In this document: positions 1 through 12,241 of the stretch, one piece after another | How the letters are laid out: every line of letters starts with the position of its first letter | How positions within the stretch are numbered: position 1 is the first letter of the stretch | Assembly: GCF_000355905.1 (NCBI RefSeq) | Contig: NZ_APLF01000001.1 | Coordinates: 62,001-126,000 of the forward strand | Direction: 5' to 3' | DNA length: 64,000 bases | Source of the DNA: Psychroflexus gondwanensis ACAM 44 | Lineage (GTDB): Bacteria > Bacteroidota > Bacteroidia > Flavobacteriales > Flavobacteriaceae | Translations under genes and position numbers: made by a program | The notes under the pieces: model-generated | Database searches by the model: none | Told to the model about the DNA's origin: nothing | Seen by the model: only the letters and a program-made list of their open reading frames with translations

Positions 1-1370
1 TTTGTTATCTTTTTGGTAAAGTGCACATTGGTAGATAAGCTAAGGTTACGTTCGTCTAAAACCTGAGCAATGTTATCCCTAGAATTGAAAAGCAATTCAT
101 GATTCACATCAGAATTATTAACCGATAAGTCAGTTTGAAAGGTGATAAAGTGATCTTCATCTATAGAATGTTTTATTTCAAAGTCATTTCTAAGATTGAG
201 GTTTTTGGTTTGAAACGCATTGTCTTCTTGAAAATTGATGGTTTCGTTTGGTAAAAAATAGGAGGTAAGATTGGTATAATCACTTTGAAATTGGTCTGCT
301 GTCACAAACAAGGAATTTCTTAGTTTACTGTCTTTCCAAATGGTCTTATTGGCCAAGAGATTATTGGATACACTCTCATTTTCCACGTAAAATTTGTCAT
401 CAATCAATATCGAGTTTGGATTTAAGTTCAAAAATGAATCTTGATCCAAACTATAGTTTTCATCAAAATCATTGAACCCCATTTGCTGGTAGACGTAATT
501 ATTGAGTTGCTCTCCTGCTGGCTTGCCAACTGAATTGATATTACCCAAATCCAGAAGTTTCACCTCGGGTCGTATAAGCCCCAGATTAAGATCTACTTCG
601 TAGCGACTATCATTGCCGATTCCTGTTTTTAAAGCTCCAAACCAAATAGATTTGGCTTTATCTTTTAATTTTAAATTGAGTACCACCGCTTCGCTATCTA
701 GAAATTGCTTCAACACTGGGTTTTCACTATAGTTATTGATGACTTCAACTTTGCTGAGTACATCGGCGCTAAGGTTTTTGGAAATGGTTTTATAATTTTT
801 GTCGGCAAGGTCATCTCCTTCTATCAATATTTTTTGAATGCTTTTGCCTTGTGCTTTTATATTTCCATCATCGTCTATTTCAATACCTGGTAAATTTTTT
901 AAGACATCTTCAACAGTTTGCTCTGTTTCGTTAATAAAAGCAGAAACTCTGTAGGCTACCGTATCCCTATTGACTTTAATTTTTTCTTCAGTTTCAAGAA
1001 CCACCGTATTAAGCTGTTCAACTTTTGGAGTTAAACTGAAATTTTGAGTAATATTTCGCCCTGCTGTAGTATTTACTAAAACGTGTTGCGACTCATAACC
1101 AAAACTACTCACCTTTAAATACAATGAATCTGCATCAGCTTTTATCGATAACTCATATTTCCCATTTTCTGTAGAATAGGTGTACCCCAAAAACTTATTT
1201 GTAGAAGAACTTATGACGATGCTAGACCCTTCGAGAGGTAAATTTGATCCAACTTCTAAGACTTGACCTTTAATATCTAGCTTTTGAGCCTGAGCCAAAA
1301 ATGGCATCAATAAGCTTAAATATATAACTATAAGTCGAATAGGTTTAAGAAGTATGCTTAGTGTGATCAA
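1..1370 (-). CDS. Outer-membrane beta-barrel receptor with carboxypeptidase-regulatory-like domain (partial, continues past left edge)
   Basis: Reading leftward from a TTG at 1370, the frame is open to the window edge, so the C-terminal barrel is missing. The N-terminus is a hydrophobic signal segment ending LLMPFLAQAQ, followed by a beta-sandwich of the CarboxypepD_reg type (KGQVLEVGSNLPLEGSSIVI, about residues 30-110). Next comes a plug-like region with VEDVLKNLPGIEIDDDGNIK, typical of TonB-dependent-receptor-like proteins of Bacteroidetes, and then the start of the barrel. An in-frame stop lies just upstream of the TTG; the first in-frame ATG (about 1307) would cut the signal peptide. The TTG is 22 bases after the stop of the GLPGLI gene at 1393, suggesting co-transcription. 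The substrate is unknown; a link to the neighbouring GLPGLI proteins or small peptide is inferred from position only. Confidence 0.8.
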   Translation of the reverse strand, partial: MITLSILLKPIRLIVIYLSLLMPFLAQAQKLDIKGQVLEVGSNLPLEGSSIVISSSTNKFLGYTYSTENGKYELSIKADADSLYLKVSSFGYESQHVLVNTTAGRNITQNFSLTPKVEQLNTVVLETEEKIKVNRDTVAYRVSAFINETEQTVEDVLKNLPGIEIDDDGNIKAQGKSIQKILIEGDDLADKNYKTISKNLSADVLSKVEVINNYSENPVLKQFLDSEAVVLNLKLKDKAKSIWFGALKTGIGNDSRYEVDLNLGLIRPEVKLLDLGNINSVGKPAGEQLNNYVYQQMGFNDFDENYSLDQDSFLNLNPNSILIDDKFYVENESVSNNLLANKTIWKDSKLRNSLFVTADQFQSDYTNLTSYFLPNETINFQEDNAFQTKNLNLRNDFEIKHSIDEDHFITFQTDLSVNNSDVNHELLFNSRDNIAQVLDERNLSLSTNVHFTKKIT

Positions 1371-1392
1371 GGATTAAGTTTAGTTTGTATTA

Positions 1393-2178
1393 CTATTCAA
1401 TTTCATAAACTTCTATATAACTATTTGTTTTCAAAACTTTCGATTTCGAGCCAGATACACCCATGTTTTCTGCTATCATCCTACCTCCCATTCTAGCATC
1501 AAGAAAAGCTTTGATTAGAAATTTTTTATGTTCCTCATAAGAAATCCACGAAGACTTAGGATTTTTTATAGGTTTGAGTAAATAAGAGTGCTTGGTAGGG
1601 TATTCTATATTTTTAAAATACCAATAGATTTCTTTATCAGTATCATAAGCTTCCAAAATTAAACCCGGCAAGCCTACTAGTTTCCATGGGCCGTAAGGCA
1701 AAGGAATTTGTGGCGTAAACCAAGCGGTATAATCTCGCCCTCTAAAGTGGGCGGTTGCTTTTTGAACTTTATAAACTCCTATCATTTTTGTTTCTTCTGC
1801 TATGTCCCAAGGAATGTCTATGGTGTTATCCTTGACGTATTTAAACCCTAAATCACGTGAATACAAGATTTTTTCTTTTGGAGTATAATAATATCGAAAA
1901 CCTTCGGGATTAGTCGCAACAGTAATAGAATGCCTTGCCTCAGGACTAACTTGGAAAGATTTTTGCTCTCTAATGTGTCCACCTTCCAAAGAATCTTTTC
2001 TAGTCACATATAAAGAATTGTCTTTGTTAAACACCAACATAGCCCTATAATCTGGGCCAATAGGCGCACCCATATCAATACTTTGGACTTCGCCGTAGTT
2101 TACTATGCCTGTTTGGGCAGAAATTTCATCAGTTAATAATATTAAGCAAATAGCTAATAGTAAAATTAAGACTTTCAT
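1393..2178 (-). CDS. GLPGLI family secreted protein, copy 1
   Basis: Member of the GLPGLI family of Bacteroidetes (named for the motif, present here as KLVGLPGLILEAYD); the biochemical function of the family is not known. It has a signal peptide (MKVLILLLAI...ISAQ) and a conserved core with FRGRDYTAWFTPQIPLPYGPWK before the motif. The reading frame can be extended to a TTG at 2196, but that overlaps a good promoter -7 box, and the ATG at 2178 aligns with the start of the third copy, so 2178 is preferred. It is the last and most diverged of three tandem copies and is followed after 22 bases by the outer-membrane barrel gene. About 261 residues, normal for the family. A periplasmic or surface location follows from the signal peptide. 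Confidence 0.88.
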   Translation of the reverse strand: MKVLILLLAICLILLTDEISAQTGIVNYGEVQSIDMGAPIGPDYRAMLVFNKDNSLYVTRKDSLEGGHIREQKSFQVSPEARHSITVATNPEGFRYYYTPKEKILYSRDLGFKYVKDNTIDIPWDIAEETKMIGVYKVQKATAHFRGRDYTAWFTPQIPLPYGPWKLVGLPGLILEAYDTDKEIYWYFKNIEYPTKHSYLLKPIKNPKSSWISYEEHKKFLIKAFLDARMGGRMIAENMGVSGSKSKVLKTNSYIEVYEIE

Positions 2179-2193
2179 ACTATTAATTTTAAC

Positions 2194-2201
2194 CAAACTT
2201 A
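2194..2201 (-). promoter_or_regulatory. Candidate -7 box of GLPGLI copy 1
   Basis: On the minus strand this reads TAAGTTTG, a full match to the Bacteroidetes -7 consensus TAnnTTTG, about 16 bases before the ATG at 2178. The same box and flanking bases occur before copy 2, so the promoter was duplicated with the gene. No clear -33 TTG is seen at the usual spacing. Confidence 0.4.
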
Positions 2202-2306
2202 ATTAAAACTAAGTACGTAGTTTTATCATTCTAAACTTTAACAGATTTAGTTTAAATAATGACTATTAATTTAAATTGTGTGTGTAAAAGGTATTTAAAG
2301 GTAATT

Positions 2307-3095
2307 TCACTTATCAATAGCAAAGGCTTCAATATAATTATCTAACCGTTCAGTCTTAGATCTTGATTTTGAAACTCCCATATTTTCAGTCATCATTCTG
2401 CCAGCTTCTCTTGCACTAACAGCATCCTTTATTAAAGAATCTTTGTATTCTTTAAAACTTATCCATGAAGCATTTGGGTTGTCAATAGATTTTAACTGAT
2501 GTGATTGCTTCGTTGGGTATTCTATATTTTTAAAATACCAATAGATTTCTTTATCAGTATCATAAGCTTCCAAAATTAAACCTGGTAAACCTACCAACTT
2601 CCATGGCCCGTAAGGCAAAGGAATTTGTGGCGTAAACCAAGCCGTATAATCCCGTCCTCTAAAGTGGGCTGTTGCTTTTTGAACTTTATAAATTCCTATC
2701 ATTTTTGTCTCTTCTGCTATGTCCCAAGGAATGTCTATGGTGTTGTCTTTTACATAATCAAACCCTAAATCGCGAGCATACAAGGTTTTGTCGTTTGGGT
2801 TATAATAATATTGAAATCCCTCAGGGTTAGTTGCCACTGTTATAGTAAAGCCTCTACCAGAAGAAGCACGATAAGATTTTTGTTCATAAATACTTTCTCC
2901 TTCCAAAGAGTCTTTTCTCGTAACGTATAAAGAATTATCTTTATCAAACACCAACATAGCTTTATAATCAGGACCAATGGGTGCACCCATTTCCATACTT
3001 TGGACTTCTCCATAATTTACGAGGCCTGTTTGGGCAGAAATTTCATCAGTTAATAATGTTGAGCAAATAGCTAATAGTAGAATTAAGAATTTCAT
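2307..3095 (-). CDS. GLPGLI family secreted protein, copy 2
   Basis: Second of three tandem paralogues, about 262 residues, with signal peptide (MKFLILLLAICSTLLTDEIS) and the same central core ending in GLPGLILEAYDTDKEIYW. A longer reading from a TTG at 3113 is rejected because that codon lies inside a promoter-like TAAGTTTG box and the ATG at 3095 matches the start of copy 3. Long stretches are identical at the DNA level to copy 3, including silent positions, whereas copy 1 differs, which suggests recent duplication or gene conversion between 2 and 3. The C-terminal third (residues about 200-262) is the most variable part among the copies. Function unknown; export expected. Confidence 0.88.
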   Translation of the reverse strand: MKFLILLLAICSTLLTDEISAQTGLVNYGEVQSMEMGAPIGPDYKAMLVFDKDNSLYVTRKDSLEGESIYEQKSYRASSGRGFTITVATNPEGFQYYYNPNDKTLYARDLGFDYVKDNTIDIPWDIAEETKMIGIYKVQKATAHFRGRDYTAWFTPQIPLPYGPWKLVGLPGLILEAYDTDKEIYWYFKNIEYPTKQSHQLKSIDNPNASWISFKEYKDSLIKDAVSAREAGRMMTENMGVSKSRSKTERLDNYIEAFAIDK

Positions 3096-3110
3096 AATAT
3101 TAATTTTAAC

Positions 3111-3118
3111 CAAACTTA
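3111..3118 (-). promoter_or_regulatory. Candidate -7 box of GLPGLI copy 2
   Basis: The minus strand reads TAAGTTTG (TAnnTTTG consensus), about 16 bases before the ATG at 3095. It is the same arrangement as before copy 1. The -33 TTG is not evident. Confidence 0.4.
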
Positions 3119-3185
3119 ATTAAAACTAAGCATATAGTTATATTGATTGTTGATTTTAACAGTATCTCTTTAGTTTATATTACTC

Positions 3186-3962
3186 TCATTCCTCAACAAT
3201 AAAGGCCTCAATATAACCATCTAGTTTTTTTAATTTAGAATTTGATTTCGATGACCCTATATTTTCAGCTATCATTTTACCAGCAGCTTTTGCGTCCAAA
3301 GATTTTTCAATTCTATTTTTTTTATAATCTTGGAAACTTATCCATGAAGCATTTGGGTTGTCAATAGGTTTTAAAAGGTATGCTTGCTTTGTTGGGTATT
3401 CTATATTTTTAAAATACCAATAGATTTCTTTATCAGTATCATAAGCTTCCAAAATTAAACCTGGTAAACCTACCAACTTCCATGGCCCGTAAGGCAAAGG
3501 TATTTGTGATGTAAACCAAGCAGTATAATCTCGCCCTCTAAAGTGGGCGGTTGCTTTTTGAACTTTATAAATTCCTATCATTTTTGTCTCTTCTGTTATG
3601 TCCCAAGGAATGTCTATAGTGTTATCCTTCACATAATCAAAACCTAAATCTCGTGAAAACAAAGTGTTTTCTTTTGTTTTATAATAATATTGAAAGCCTA
3701 TTGGGTTGGTCACTACAGTTATTGTAAAACCTCTATTAGAAGAAGCACGATAAGACTTCTGTTCTCGTATATGACCACCTTCCAAAGAGTCTTTTCTCGT
3801 AACGTATAAAGAATTATCTTTGTTAAACACCAAAATAGCCCTATAATCAGGACCAATTGGTGCACCCATTTCCATACTTTGGACTTCGCCATAATTGACT
3901 ATGCCCGTTTGGGGTAAGACATTTAGACTAGTTAAATAAATAATGATTACAAAAAATTTCAT
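3186..3962 (-). CDS. GLPGLI family secreted protein, copy 3 (promoter-proximal)
   Basis: Third tandem paralogue, 258 residues. It differs from copies 1 and 2 in its signal peptide (MKFFVIIIYLTSLNVLPQTG), which lacks the LTDEISAQ ending, while the mature N-terminus GIVNYGEVQS is shared by all. The core has WFTSQIPLPYGPWK, with Ser in place of the Pro of the other copies, then the GLPGLI motif. It starts 48 bases after the stop of the four-cysteine peptide gene, with a hairpin between them, so it is probably transcribed from the peptide gene's promoter by read-through. No TAnnTTTG box precedes it, unlike the other two copies. Function unknown; secretion inferred. Confidence 0.88.
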   Translation of the reverse strand: MKFFVIIIYLTSLNVLPQTGIVNYGEVQSMEMGAPIGPDYRAILVFNKDNSLYVTRKDSLEGGHIREQKSYRASSNRGFTITVVTNPIGFQYYYKTKENTLFSRDLGFDYVKDNTIDIPWDITEETKMIGIYKVQKATAHFRGRDYTAWFTSQIPLPYGPWKLVGLPGLILEAYDTDKEIYWYFKNIEYPTKQAYLLKPIDNPNASWISFQDYKKNRIEKSLDAKAAGKMIAENIGSSKSNSKLKKLDGYIEAFIVEE

Positions 3963-3976
3963 GTTTTAAAAATTAA

Positions 3977-3999
3977 GGCTGGAAAATAAATCTCCAGCC
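3977..3999 (-). terminator. Attenuator-like hairpin between peptide gene and GLPGLI copy 3
   Basis: Arms 3977-3983 (GGCTGGA) and 3993-3999 (TCCAGCC) pair over 7 bp with a 9-base loop. On the minus strand the stem is followed by a T-rich tract (TTAATTTTT) before the ATG at 3962. It lies inside an apparent operon, so a leaky terminator that makes the first gene more abundant than the rest is a reasonable reading; this is inference. Confidence 0.55.
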
Positions 4000-4010
4000 A
4001 TTGATTAATA

Positions 4011-4214
4011 TTAACTACAAGAATCTTCAAATTGATCACCGAGGTCTTCTGCGTATTTGCAATCTACTACCCCTTCATAGTCTGGATCACCATCGCCATT
4101 ACAATTTGTTTTAACAGTGCAACTATCACCAAGCATTTCTTCTGAGGATTCAACTGTAGAAGGATTAAACAGAAATAACGGTAACATCAAAAATGACATC
4201 AATAAAATTTTCAT
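4011..4214 (-). CDS. Small secreted four-cysteine acidic peptide
   Basis: Sixty-seven residues with a clear signal peptide (MKILLMSFLMLPLFLFNPS) and a short acidic mature part rich in Asp, Glu and Gly. It has four cysteines at residues 32, 38, 52 and 66 (spacing C-x5-C-x13-C-x13-C), enough for two disulfides. The central GDGDPDYEG is acidic enough to bind a cation, but no EF-hand is complete. It is the first gene of the run that continues with three GLPGLI genes and an outer-membrane barrel. Short Cys-containing peptides such as the NVEALA group are known in Bacteroidetes; similarity to that group is loose and not claimed. Function unknown: possibly a secreted effector, an adhesive or a processed peptide. 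Confidence 0.72.
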   Translation of the reverse strand: MKILLMSFLMLPLFLFNPSTVESSEEMLGDSCTVKTNCNGDGDPDYEGVVDCKYAEDLGDQFEDSCS

Positions 4215-4358
4215 GATTTTAAATTTTTAAAATTTAAGTGTTGCAATTTTAAATCTTGCCAGATTAGTTAACATAGGTCAACACCTAAGTAAAGATCTCA
4301 TGAAAAATACATATACTTGTAGCGTCAGCGAGTATGAAATTTTTAATGCTTGTTTTGT

Positions 4359-4392
4359 GAAATGCTTTTCTTCGGAAGGGCATTTCCTTTTT
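4359..4392 (+). terminator. Strong intrinsic terminator with UUCG tetraloop, no upstream plus-strand gene
   Basis: Arms 4359-4370 and 4375-4386 form a 12-bp stem (two G-U pairs) closed by a TTCG tetraloop and followed by CTTTTT. The T-run lies only on the plus-strand side. All annotated neighbours are on the minus strand to the left or converge from the right, so the transcript it ends is not accounted for. Confidence 0.65.
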
Positions 4393-8995: not shown

Positions 8996-11900
8996 TTAGT
9001 TAAAGATATACCTTACACCAACTTGCATTTGCCATCTTGAAGATAGGATTCCTGAGTCATCAAAGTTTTCAACATCTGCTTCTGTAGTAAATTCTTCTAA
9101 ATTAAAACTAAACGCAGGATCTGGACCACCTTCTTCGACATTTAATATTCCTATACCACCTGGGATAAATGGTCTACGACCCCAATCCTTGTTGATGAGA
9201 TTTGTAAAGTTGAAAATATCAAAAGAGAGTTGGAACGTATGTTTCTTATCATTTAAATCCAAGCTGATATCTTGTAAGAATTTAAGATCCACAATATGAC
9301 TCCATGGCCCTCTTTCTCCATTACGCGCTGCATATTCACCTCTTCTTTCTCTTAAGTAATCGCTCGAATTAATATAACCGTTAAGCGCCTCCCACTGCTC
9401 AGCTGGAGTTGCAATTAAATTTTCATCTCTATCAAGTAAAGGAACTAAATTAATTTCCGAAGCATCCCTAGGAATATAGATTAAAGCGTTGTCTCTTGAA
9501 TCATCATTTAGAAGGTTTGATGGTCTGTTATTGTATACATATGTAAATGGACTCCCTTCTTCACCGGCATAAAATAACGAAACGGTACTTTTTACATTGT
9601 CATTCCACTCGTACTCATAGCTCATGTTAGCCGTGAATCTAGATCCTAGTGCAAAGTTAGAGCGTTGAATACCTGGATTTGCGTTTTTACCGTTTACTGT
9701 TTCTAGGTTTCTCCACTGTGATGAGTTTTGGGAAGAGGTTCCTTCAAAAACATTATAAGACTCACCATAAGTGTAAGCCAATTGACCTGCAAAACCATTT
9801 TCAAAAGGCTTCGTTAATTTAAACGTAGCATTGTAAGAATAGCCTTCACTTGTATTTGTTCCTAAAAAGACGCTAGAATAATCATCATCTATCAGGGCAC
9901 GTCTATTATAGAAAGGTCTATTGTCTGCTCCATTAAGATTTCCTACTGGACCTCTAATGTTTAAATTCTCATAAAAAATGGCATTTAATACATCGTTATA
10001 CAAAAACTCTCCAGAGGCAATTAAACCCCAAACTGGTAGTTTTTGATCTACTGCGATATTATACTTAGCCACCTGAGGTAATTTAAAGTCAGGCGAAAAG
10101 ATATCGATTTGTCCACCTCTCGCACCTGTTCCTGGCTCAGCTCCTGGCTGTACGGGCTGGTCGAAGGGGTCTGCATTAAAAAATATGTCTCCATCTATTG
10201 CTCTTTCATCAACAAATCCGGCAGTTAAACCGTTATTGTTGTAGGCTCCACCTGGCCATACTAAAGGAATTCTAGAGGTAAAGACTCCTACACCACCTCT
10301 TACTTGAGTGGATTTATTACCACCTACGTCCCAAGAAAATCCAAGTCTTGGAGAAAAGTGAACCTGGCTTTTTATAGCCTTACCTACCCTTGCTCCTTGT
10401 AGGTCTTTGCCATTAGCTTCGAGAAGCTCAACGGTTCTTGTGTTGAAGTCATCGTTAACTAAACCATCATCAAAAAATGGAACATCAATACGAAGACCTA
10501 AACTAACTTTAAAATCATCGGTTAAATCTACATCATCCTGAACGTAAAACCCTAATTGAGAATATGCAAATTCTGCAGCCCCTAAAGAGTCATCACCAAG
10601 ACCTCCAAGAAGGGAATAGCCTCTATCAAAAAATCTAGCTGGTGCTTCGTTTCCATCAACATCGTCTAAATAAGTTTCAAAATCCTCCAATGAATTAAAC
10701 GCGTACTGACCGTAATTTTGTCTAAAGAATACGTTTTTAGAATCAAAATATTCAAAGTTTGCACCGAAAGTTAACTTGTGACGCCCTCTATAAAGCTCGA
10801 AGTTATTAGTAATATTCAATACTTTTTGCTCTAGTAAGTTAGCTGTAGAAAATGCCTCTGAACCAAAGTCAATATCTGCAGGACCATCAAATATTCTAAC
10901 CCTAGGAAATGGATTTCCAGTTGGATTTCTATCATCCAATACATCGGTATAGGCCACAATCAAGTTGTTGGACATGTCCGACCCATTTGTTGTACTCCAC
11001 TCTAGTGTTGTCGAATTGGTTCTTGAAGGAAAAAATACGCCTGCATTACTATAGTTGATGTTTCTATCACTACTTTGTCTTGGATTTGTATTTTCAGCAT
11101 TTACATAACTATTCTTAAGCGTAATGCTGTTTTTATCATTTACGTTCCAGTCAATACGTGCAATTAACTTATCACTTACTAAGCTAGTTGTATTATTGTC
11201 AAAAACTCCAGGATTGTAGCCATAATTGTCAATCAAGCCTTGCTTTAAGTTAGCTAAGTCTTGAGCAGATGAAGTTCCCTGGTAACGGTCAAAGACAAAA
11301 GGTTGAGGCGTTTGCTCATCCTGTCTTTCGTAGTTGATAAAGTAGAATAATTTATCTTCTACAATCGCTCCACCTACTCTAGCTCCAAAAAGCTTTGCAG
11401 TAAAGTCTGTCAATTTCTCTCTATTGTCTTCGCTAATCCCCGTAGGTGTCTTACCTGCTAGGTCTTGATTTCTTAAGTAGTAGTATGCTGAACCTTCTGT
11501 ATTATTAGATCCAGAACGCGTAATGGCATTGATAGATCCACCAGCGAAACCAGATTGTCTCACATCAAATGGAGAAAGGTTAACCTGAAAAGATTCAATC
11601 GCATCAATGGAGATTGGGCTTACTCCAGTTTGTCCACCATTGGTTCCTGAACCGGCAAGTCCAAAAGCATCGTTATTTACCGCTCCATCAATATAAATAG
11701 CGTTGTATCTGTTGTTTTGTCCACCTAAAGAGATACTTCCATTTTCTCCTACTTGCGCTTCTGGAGTTGTTCTAATGAAATCTCCTAAAGATCGGGTTGC
11801 AGACGGAAGATTAGAAATCTGTCTTTGAGAAATGTTTGTATTAGATCCTGATTGTCCAGAATCGAAAATACCATTTCTAGAAGCCGAGATAACCACCTCA

Positions 11901-12241
11901 TCCAAGGCGTTATCGGACTCAGACATTTGTCTGCTAATTCTTTCTGAATCGCCTAATTTTAAAAAGAAATTACTTAAAGAAATTTCTTCAAAACCAACGT
12001 AAGTGATTTTCAAAGTGTAGGGTCCACCAACACGCATGTTTGGGATTCTGTAGAAACCATCAAAATCTGTCACAACACCATACTGTGTTCCAGTAGGTGT
12101 ATGCACAGCAATAATATTTGCCCCAGGAAGAGGTTGGTCATTATTGTCTGTGATCTTACCATTAATAGAGGAAGTAGTCACCCCTTGTTCATAAATACCC
12201 ACTCCCATCACTAAGAATAAGCCAAGTAGCAATTTTTTCAT
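8996..12241 (-). CDS. Oar-like TonB-dependent receptor
   Basis: 1081 residues. A signal peptide (MKKLLLGLFLVMGVG) is followed by a CarboxypepD_reg-like domain (about 25-110: INGKITDNNDQPLPGANI, FDGFYRIPNMRVGGPYTLKITYVGF). A plug domain follows (about 130-250: SATRSLGDFIRTTPEAQV, NRYNAIYIDGAVNNDAFG), then a long barrel ending in an aromatic C-terminus (VGVRYIFN). This is the architecture of Oar proteins, first described in Myxococcus outer membranes and common in Bacteroidetes, where they are thought to import or move large substrates with TonB energy. The substrate is unknown. It stands alone, without an SusD partner, flanked by a terminator. The ATG at 12241 is preceded by an AT-rich 200-base region with no other gene. 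Confidence 0.92.
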   Translation of the reverse strand: MKKLLLGLFLVMGVGIYEQGVTTSSINGKITDNNDQPLPGANIIAVHTPTGTQYGVVTDFDGFYRIPNMRVGGPYTLKITYVGFEEISLSNFFLKLGDSERISRQMSESDNALDEVVISASRNGIFDSGQSGSNTNISQRQISNLPSATRSLGDFIRTTPEAQVGENGSISLGGQNNRYNAIYIDGAVNNDAFGLAGSGTNGGQTGVSPISIDAIESFQVNLSPFDVRQSGFAGGSINAITRSGSNNTEGSAYYYLRNQDLAGKTPTGISEDNREKLTDFTAKLFGARVGGAIVEDKLFYFINYERQDEQTPQPFVFDRYQGTSSAQDLANLKQGLIDNYGYNPGVFDNNTTSLVSDKLIARIDWNVNDKNSITLKNSYVNAENTNPRQSSDRNINYSNAGVFFPSRTNSTTLEWSTTNGSDMSNNLIVAYTDVLDDRNPTGNPFPRVRIFDGPADIDFGSEAFSTANLLEQKVLNITNNFELYRGRHKLTFGANFEYFDSKNVFFRQNYGQYAFNSLEDFETYLDDVDGNEAPARFFDRGYSLLGGLGDDSLGAAEFAYSQLGFYVQDDVDLTDDFKVSLGLRIDVPFFDDGLVNDDFNTRTVELLEANGKDLQGARVGKAIKSQVHFSPRLGFSWDVGGNKSTQVRGGVGVFTSRIPLVWPGGAYNNNGLTAGFVDERAIDGDIFFNADPFDQPVQPGAEPGTGARGGQIDIFSPDFKLPQVAKYNIAVDQKLPVWGLIASGEFLYNDVLNAIFYENLNIRGPVGNLNGADNRPFYNRRALIDDDYSSVFLGTNTSEGYSYNATFKLTKPFENGFAGQLAYTYGESYNVFEGTSSQNSSQWRNLETVNGKNANPGIQRSNFALGSRFTANMSYEYEWNDNVKSTVSLFYAGEEGSPFTYVYNNRPSNLLNDDSRDNALIYIPRDASEINLVPLLDRDENLIATPAEQWEALNGYINSSDYLRERRGEYAARNGERGPWSHIVDLKFLQDISLDLNDKKHTFQLSFDIFNFTNLINKDWGRRPFIPGGIGILNVEEGGPDPAFSFNLEEFTTEADVENFDDSGILSSRWQMQVGVRYIFN

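What the first reader, a model, noticed from the sequence alone, without database searches (positions are those of the whole stretch)
1..4214. Secreted four-cysteine peptide with three GLPGLI paralogues and an outer-membrane barrel: a possible peptide-centred secretion or maturation system
Seen: a 67-residue signal-peptide-bearing, acidic, four-Cys protein (C32, C38, C52, C66) is the first gene of a same-strand run. It continues with three tandem GLPGLI proteins and a CarboxypepD_reg/plug barrel protein, with short gaps and one attenuator-like hairpin after the peptide gene. Known: GLPGLI proteins are a Bacteroidetes family without assigned function. Inferred: abundant small peptide plus several related exported partners plus an outer-membrane barrel resembles a precursor/processing/transport layout. 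The role could be metal or redox handling, cell-cell interaction or peptide display.
Basis: partly seen in the sequence, partly recalled or inferred. Interest (0 to 1): 0.75.

Follow-up and report, generated by a model that had tools for sequence, protein, structure and literature searches.

The report
Variable secreted peptides with GLPGLI partners
The window begins with one copy of a repeatedly used gene module of Bacteroidota, in which a small, apparently secreted cysteine peptide that can differ between species sits in front of GLPGLI genes and an outer-membrane barrel gene; it looks like a dedicated production-and-export unit for diversifying peptides whose activity is not yet known.

Summary
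In detail: a 67-aa signal-peptide protein (C32, C38, C52, C66), a hairpin, three GLPGLI genes and a TonB-receptor-like barrel gene (cut by the window edge) form one minus-strand run in a Psychroflexus genome. It is not a one-off. Small signal-peptide ORFs with at least two Cys lie directly 5' of 29 of 123 GLPGLI genes, but of 3 of 370 other genes and 0 of 64 barrels; in a second, cluster-biased set 14 of 41, against 0 of 56 and 0 of 11. Cys number is even in 41 of these 43. A strong hairpin follows the peptide in 16 of 21 scorable gaps, against 3 of 26 before other GLPGLI genes. Against P. lacisalsi a 6-kb block is about 99% identical except the peptide (64%; dS 1.8 against 0.01-0.02); two more loci pair near-identical GLPGLI genes with different peptides. 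Best explanation: GLPGLI and barrel are machinery for diversifying disulfide peptides. Recurrence and peptide differences are shown by sequence; secretion, disulfides, export direction and activity are inferred. Counter-evidence: 94 of 123 GLPGLI genes have no such peptide, and several related loci lack it.

The parts
4011..4214 (-). Four-Cys peptide gene with signal peptide (67 aa), first gene of the run; the part that differs from P. lacisalsi
   Evidence: homologues in 3 other Psychroflexus genomes; 64% nt identity to P. lacisalsi inside a block of about 99% identity; dN 0.37, dS 1.84 in that pair
4215..4360 (-). 5' leader of the peptide gene, 95% identical to P. lacisalsi; edge of the shared block
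3977..3999 (-). Terminator/attenuator-like hairpin between the peptide gene and the first GLPGLI gene
   Evidence: -15.2 kcal/mol, none of 20 shuffles as strong
3186..3962 (-). GLPGLI protein 1 (258 aa, signal peptide)
   Evidence: TIGR01200 138.4 bits; PF09697
2307..3095 (-). GLPGLI protein 2
   Evidence: TIGR01200 145.7 bits
1393..2178 (-). GLPGLI protein 3
   Evidence: TIGR01200 145 bits
1..1370 (-). 5' part of the TonB-receptor-like barrel gene (887 aa in all; continues beyond the window's left edge)
   Evidence: CarbopepD_reg_2; family profile hits 9gbc 'TonB-linked outer membrane receptor' over profile positions 1-456

Best explanation
The run is one copy of a modular peptide system. A Sec-type signal peptide sends a small disulfide peptide to the periplasm; GLPGLI proteins, also exported, act there as binding or maturation partners; the TonB-receptor-like barrel moves the peptide out or holds it at the surface. 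The hairpin behind the peptide gene lets some transcripts end there, so that more peptide than machinery is made. The peptide is exchanged and diversified by recombination between alike leader/signal and GLPGLI sequences, as expected for a secreted product under rivalry between strains (a competition or signalling peptide). Shown from sequence: the recurrent module, the hairpin, even Cys numbers, different peptides with near-identical partner genes. Inferred: secretion, disulfides, partnership, outward direction, attenuation, selection and biological role.
For: Association: 29 of 123 GLPGLI genes against 3 of 370 other genes and 0 of 64 barrels (Fisher 5e-16); second set 14 of 41 against 0 of 56 and 0 of 11. 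Of the 29, the next gene on the strand is a barrel in 15 and a further GLPGLI in 11. Cys number after residue 22 even in 27 of 29 and 14 of 14. Residues 21 to the end carry net negative charge in 31 of 33 peptides. Hairpin in 16 of 21 peptide-GLPGLI gaps of 20-140 nt, 3 of 26 other gaps before GLPGLI, 17 of 74 before other genes. Different peptide, same machinery: window locus, C8 locus (GLPGLI 99.6%, barrel 94.8%, peptide beyond its first 48 nt 61.6%), array locus (GLPGLI 99.2% over 1049 nt with start of the barrel, mature peptides unrelated). Alike signal, unlike mature part: residues 9-20 median 75%, residues 21-32 8%. Several peptide-GLPGLI cassettes before one barrel. GLPGLI core is homologous to the N-terminal domain of PNGase F-II (E 3.9e-12), an enzyme that acts on glycopeptides (recalled). 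A TonB-dependent barrel needed for protein secretion has precedent, Oar/PopC (PMC6434023, abstract and outline).
Against: No expression, localisation or secretion data. Both structure predictions failed (mean pLDDT 36 and 31). Window-type GLPGLI and barrel without peptide in P. longus and Zunongwangia; C10 site without peptide in P. lacisalsi (L105); a GLPGLI clade of 41 rows with none by the rule: GLPGLI and barrel have some use without such a peptide. At the C8 locus the DNA upstream of the peptide and the gap behind it differ too, so a single crossover at the GLPGLI start explains it; only the window locus and the array show the difference confined to the peptide (in the array, with the gap behind it). 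Some array peptides are nearly identical in the two species (L011, L108). In P. sediminis against P. aurantiacus GLPGLI differs along with the peptide. Hairpins in peptide gaps are not richer in following T than control hairpins (at least 4 T in 8 nt: 10 of 16 against 13 of 17). TonB-type barrels are usually importers. Counts are not phylogenetically independent.
Confidence: 0.5

Rival explanations
1. Uptake system: the barrel imports a substrate and the secreted peptide is a scavenger or carrier that returns through it, with GLPGLI as periplasmic receiver; variation guards against theft by neighbours.
For: Barrel is of the TonB-receptor type; the window peptide has an acidic CNGDGDPDY stretch that resembles calcium-binding loops (resemblance recalled, no call); peptide-free GLPGLI-barrel pairs exist.
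Against: A receptor that recognises its own carrier should vary with it, yet barrel and GLPGLI are about 99% identical where the peptide differs, and in the array the same GLPGLI stands behind unrelated peptides.
Confidence: 0.2
2. Toxin and immunity: the peptide is a short-range bacteriocin and GLPGLI its periplasmic immunity protein; the barrel exports the peptide or is its target.
For: Alternating peptide-GLPGLI cassettes, GLPGLI genes without a peptide, displaced barrel 5' pieces between cassettes, divergent mature peptides, peptide and GLPGLI differing together in P. sediminis against P. aurantiacus.
Against: Strict one-to-one immunity is hard to square with 99-100% identical GLPGLI behind divergent or unrelated peptides; a clade of 41 GLPGLI genes has no such peptide gene.
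Confidence: 0.15
3. The peptide is a surface or periplasmic accessory of the barrel (for example a shield against phages or bacteriocins that use it as receptor) and varies through that arms race.
For: Small size, variation, and a barrel in the same run in most cases.
Against: The barrel, which phages would bind, is not the variable part in the window and C8 loci; several peptides per full-length barrel in arrays.
Confidence: 0.1
4. No functional link: unrelated small secreted proteins happen to be carried in a recombining region.
For: 94 of 123 GLPGLI genes lack a peptide by the rule; the region is exchanged between species.
Against: Enrichment with controls in two sets, even Cys, common position, hairpin, and recurrence in other genera, in other families of the class (L093, L098) and on a Flavobacterium and a Flammeovirga plasmid.
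Confidence: 0.03

Closest known systems
Oar/PopC secretion in Myxococcus xanthus (TonB-dependent transporter needed for protease export; PMC6434023)
   Same: TonB-receptor-type barrel proposed to move a protein cargo outwards
   Different: Cargo is a protease; abstract and outline name no GLPGLI and no small variable peptide. The barrels were not compared with each other here
Bacteriocin and lantibiotic operons (recalled)
   Same: Small product gene first, hairpin behind it, then partner and transport genes; variable product
   Different: Here a Sec-type signal peptide, GLPGLI and an outer-membrane barrel
DUF560 secretion system (PMC8406197; search listing with start of abstract only)
   Same: Outer-membrane protein proposed to export proteins
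   Different: Pfam scans of the five window proteins and of 14 barrels listed no DUF560
GLPGLI family, TIGR01200 / PF09697
   Same: The three middle genes are members over the cut-offs
   Different: A link to variable peptides was not found in the searches listed in the report; two of the three papers that name GLPGLI were seen in passages, the third as a listing
N-terminal domain of PNGase F-II (4r4z, 4r4x)
   Same: Homology with the GLPGLI core (E 3.9e-12)
   Different: Window GLPGLI proteins are 258-262 aa and have no further domain over cut-off in Pfam
Conotoxin-type gene families (recalled)
   Same: Conserved signal sequence with divergent, Cys-framed mature part
   Different: Bacterial and in gene runs with GLPGLI and barrel; activity unknown

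Membership tests
GLPGLI family (TIGR01200) | Whole-protein score over the curated cut-off of 50 bits | tested here: met
   138.4, 145.7 and 145 bits for the three window proteins
TonB-dependent receptor | N-terminal carboxypeptidase-regulatory-like domain (usual in this kind of Bacteroidota receptor; recalled) | tested here: met
   CarbopepD_reg_2 in 14 of 14 barrels scanned
TonB-dependent receptor | Plug domain and closed barrel | tested here: inconclusive
   No plug family listed by Pfam; family profile matches 9gbc over positions 1-456; OMP_b-brl_3 in 1 of 14; fold prediction failed
TonB-dependent receptor | Working TonB box | not testable with these tools
   A LxxVVL-like stretch behind the N-domain is visible in the aligned barrels; reading it as a TonB box is recalled pattern matching
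Bacteriocin | Inhibits related bacteria | not testable with these tools
   No activity data
Bacteriocin operon architecture | Product gene first, hairpin, then partner genes | tested here: met
   16 of 21 scorable gaps
Known small-peptide families (Pfam, NCBIfam) | Match over a curated cut-off | tested here: not met
   0 families at E up to 1 for the window peptide; nothing over cut-off for nine other module peptides
Toxin-immunity pair | Variants of the two genes go together | tested here: not met
   Near-identical GLPGLI with divergent or unrelated peptides in three comparisons of one species pair; the P. sediminis/P. aurantiacus pair differs in both and would fit pairing

The most novel reading that the evidence does not exclude
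A TonB-energised peptide export system of Bacteroidota: GLPGLI proteins hand disulfide peptides to a receptor-type barrel running outwards, and strains change the secreted peptide by exchanging the mature coding stretch between conserved signal and partner sequences, a bacterial counterpart of venom-peptide diversification.
Probability: 0.35. Interest if true: 0.92.

Novelty: categorically new. Interest (0 to 1): 0.78.

Why it matters
GLPGLI proteins are common in Bacteroidota (26 hits in this genome; 46 of 60 class genomes match at E 0.001 and 21 over the cut-off, own genome included), and the searches made here found no function for them. A link to changing secreted peptides gives part of the family a concrete, testable role, points to a pool of unannotated Cys peptides, and would make the question whether TonB-type barrels export peptides directly testable.

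Tried and rejected
Structure prediction of GLPGLI (11 sequences) and barrel (4 sequences): mean pLDDT 36 and 31, not used, no fold search run. The tool admits only window proteins and proteins of loci from three named tools, so deeper alignments were not sent. Pfam and NCBIfam on the peptides: nothing over cut-off. Solved structures with GLPGLI 1 alone: nothing at E 10; a 50-row profile was needed. One common peptide family: a leave-one-out profile over 13 hand-picked peptides ranked the left-out one 2nd to 8th of 2732 in 10 cases and 12th to 21st in three, with E under 0.1 in 5 of 13; suggestive for a part, not a family claim. Metal or redox role: no evidence either way. Recent positive selection was rejected as cause of the P. 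lacisalsi difference, because dS is high too (1.84); an older allele kept or brought in by recombination fits better. The C8 locus was first taken as a second case of peptide-only difference; its upstream DNA and gap differ as well, so it now counts only as 'different peptide, same machinery'. The signal conservation was partly built in by the search pattern; one search repeats it on residues outside the pattern. A paper search for the PNGase domain gave nothing relevant among the 12 listed.
Full report
1. What is there. The window lies at bases 62001-126000 of contig C1 of a 3.3-Mb genome in 62 contigs. On the minus strand come a 67-aa protein with a signal peptide and Cys 32, 38, 52 and 66 (4011-4214), a hairpin (3977-3999), GLPGLI genes (3186-3962, 2307-3095, 1393-2178) and an 887-aa barrel protein that starts at 1370 and ends outside the window. 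In some searches GLPGLI 2 and 3 of the window were given from the codon after their ATG, so the first Met is missing there.

2. Families. The three GLPGLI proteins pass the curated cut-off. A profile of 50 GLPGLI proteins matches the N-terminal part of PNGase F-II (4r4z, 4r4x; E 3.9e-12) and a chain named Glpgli family protein (7zgn; 1.4e-6). The barrel has CarbopepD_reg_2 in 14 of 14 relatives scanned and OMP_b-brl_3 in 1 of 14; its profile matches a 'TonB-linked outer membrane receptor' (9gbc, 1.4e-12, positions 1-456), a 'SusC homolog' and a 'TonB-dependent receptor', the last two over the N-terminal domain only. The peptide matches nothing. Fold predictions were too poor to use.

3. Conservation of this operon. 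A search of 60 genomes, the own one included, found the peptide in 4: the own genome and three others of the genus (G016, G024, G004). All three have the order peptide, GLPGLI (three, two and one copies), barrel. Window-type GLPGLI at E 1e-40 occurs in 5 of 27 genus genomes, own included. P. longus (L027) and Zunongwangia mangrovi (L029) have GLPGLI and barrel but no peptide gene upstream; the Zunongwangia barrel reads in several pieces.

4. The module recurs. The genome has 26 GLPGLI hits, one of them a fragment. Small signal-peptide ORFs with Cys lie before GLPGLI genes in six of the nine own stretches (window operon, C8, C3, C10, C19, C7) and not in three (C34, where the contig starts about 430 bases before the gene, C5, C6). 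I then counted with a fixed rule: ATG ORF of 35-135 aa, same strand, in the gap 5' of the gene, heuristic signal peptide, at least two Cys after residue 22. Sets: nine own stretches, and 65 others: 41 covering the non-own hits of the family search at E 1e-15, 19 from the top of the class list (lower-scoring hits were not fetched), and L022-L024, L027, L029. One stretch (L091) gave no GLPGLI row. Result, own and others: GLPGLI 11 of 25 and 18 of 98; other genes 0 of 45 and 3 of 325; barrels 0 of 10 and 0 of 54. Without the Cys condition GLPGLI counts are 11 and 22, other genes 1 and 6. The counts include orthologues (L009, L022-L024). Of the 29, the next gene is a barrel in 15, GLPGLI in 11, another gene in 2, none in 1. 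A looser look at 31 GLPGLI genes without a peptide found peptide genes before two (L064 5989, L093 5483). A second set of 11 stretches from five genus genomes, chosen mostly as multi-copy clusters and so biased, gave 14 of 41 GLPGLI, 0 of 56 other genes and 0 of 11 barrels. Cys counts are even in 27 of 29 and 14 of 14; p 2e-10 if odd and even were equally likely. Odd ones: two in the own genome; also, outside the counts, the P. lacisalsi C8 peptide and one Flavobacterium plasmid peptide.

5. Plasmids. Of 14 plasmid records matching GLPGLI 1 I looked at four. Flavobacterium sp. CBA20B-1: a TonB-dependent receptor, three signal-peptide Cys peptides, two GLPGLI genes, a fourth such peptide, the four with nearly the same signal sequence. 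Flammeovirga kamogawensis: a 58-aa four-Cys peptide (first Cys close to the signal, so it may be a lipoprotein), GLPGLI, barrel. Phocaeicola massiliensis and Prevotella nigrescens: GLPGLI and barrel, no peptide by the rule.

6. Two kinds of GLPGLI. On a quick tree of 122 GLPGLI proteins the peptide label needs 18 changes, against 26.4 on average for shuffled labels (0 of 500 as low). A 41-row clade (support 81; a 34-row clade within it 96) has none by the rule, though one member (L045 5244) follows a 118-aa signal-peptide ORF with one Cys. Near-copies add to such clustering.

7. Hairpin. In peptide-GLPGLI gaps of 20-140 nt, 16 of 21 hold a hairpin of -9 kcal/mol or stronger that none of 20 shuffles reached; other gaps before GLPGLI 3 of 26; gaps before other genes 17 of 74, of which 15 with no shuffle as strong. 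Eight of 29 peptide gaps were out of range, seven under 20 nt and one over 140. L009 and its orthologues L022-L024 make four of the 16. At least 4 T follow within 8 nt in 10 of 16, against 2 of 3 and 13 of 17 in the two controls: the hairpins are commoner, not more terminator-like. That they attenuate transcription is inferred.

8. The peptide against its surroundings. Against P. lacisalsi the stretch from the leader to about 350 nt behind the barrel (about 6 kb) is about 99% identical: leader 95.2%, GLPGLI 98.9-99.6%, barrel 99.3%. Outside it, tadA and the gene on the other side run at 0.58-0.82 in all but one 150-nt step. Inside it the peptide gene alone falls to 64% (132 of 207 columns); differences begin at codon 5 and end 18 nt before the stop codon. 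dN and dS are 0.37 and 1.84 for the peptide, 0.003 and 0.013 for GLPGLI 1, 0.004 and 0.019 for the barrel. An old peptide allele sits in freshly shared surroundings. Same pair, C8 locus: GLPGLI 99.6%, barrel 94.8%, first 48 nt of the peptide 93.8%, rest 61.6%; but the gap behind it (63%) and the DNA before it (56%, gaps counted) differ too, so one crossover near the GLPGLI start explains it. Same pair, array: leader and signal alike, GLPGLI with the start of the barrel 99.2% over 1049 nt, mature peptides unrelated; the cassettes of the two arrays are partly rearranged, and other array peptides are nearly identical (L011, L108). The C10 peptide gene is absent at the P. lacisalsi counterpart (L105). 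P. sediminis against P. aurantiacus: leader 95%, barrel 85-99% after its first step, but peptide, GLPGLI and the first barrel step about 0.6-0.83, one GLPGLI copy missing; here GLPGLI varies too.

9. Alike signal, unlike mature part. Eighteen peptides from seven Psychroflexus genomes were picked by a MKKxx(S/T)II start. Over residues 1-20 the median identity is 80%, of the rest 18% (shuffled control 15%, 150 of 153 pairs). Outside the picking pattern residues 9-20 are 75% (nt 86%) and residues 21-32, ungapped, 8% identical (all pairs). Exactly two Cys after residue 20 in 17 of 18.

10. Arrays. In the C3 array three pieces matching the barrel's first 236-244 nt at 89-94% identity lie among the peptide-GLPGLI cassettes, before one full barrel. 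This looks like cassettes inserted before the barrel by recombination.

11. Reading. Gene order, hairpin, signal peptides, even Cys and cassette arrays fit a production unit whose product is the peptide. The same GLPGLI can stand behind different peptides, and one barrel closes a run of several cassettes; this favours general machinery over strict immunity or a cognate receptor. Direction of transport and activity are open. Oar/PopC shows that a TonB-dependent barrel can be needed for protein secretion (PMC6434023; abstract and outline). The mended C8 reading did not change my odds, because the window locus and the array carry that argument.

12. Print. 'GLPGLI' occurs in three papers of the library: passages seen in PMC5771137 (a domain among proteins without assigned function) and PMC9603813 (GLPGLI genes among PhoP-regulated genes), listing only for PMC8757827. 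Searches for Porph_ging/PF09697 and NVEALA found no paper; combinations of Bacteroidota/Bacteroidetes, TonB, secreted or hypervariable peptides and bacteriocins listed nothing that describes this module in title or start of abstract. The library lacks most subscription journals, so 'not in print' is limited to these searches.

Noticed in passing
L011 4203-4440, 8962-9234, 11846-12118: Truncated copies of the barrel gene's first ~240 nt lie among peptide-GLPGLI cassettes (89-94% identity), like pieces displaced by cassette insertion.
   Followed up: partly
L120 4283-7669 (Flavobacterium sp. CBA20B-1 plasmid): Plasmid-borne module with four signal-peptide Cys peptides sharing one signal sequence, two GLPGLI genes, a TonB-dependent receptor and transposase genes nearby.
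   Followed up: partly
L121 5344-9043 (Flammeovirga kamogawensis plasmid): 58-aa four-Cys peptide, GLPGLI and barrel in Cytophagales; peptide and barrel are annotated as hypothetical.
   Followed up: partly
L013 4584-7061: At this GLPGLI site two genes for lipoprotein-like proteins (353 and 178 aa, judged by eye) precede GLPGLI instead of a small peptide.
   Followed up: no
L123 3407-9911 (Prevotella nigrescens plasmid): A GLPGLI pair and barrel follow a DUF5687 protein and an ABC transporter ATPase, without a peptide gene by the rule.
   Followed up: no
L009 6359-6544: 61-aa ORF behind the barrel, inside the block shared with P. lacisalsi (stretch 99.2% identical); may or may not be a gene.
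   Followed up: no
window 8996-12241: A separate ORF of 1081 aa on the same strand looks like another TonB receptor by eye; no family search was run on it.
   Followed up: no
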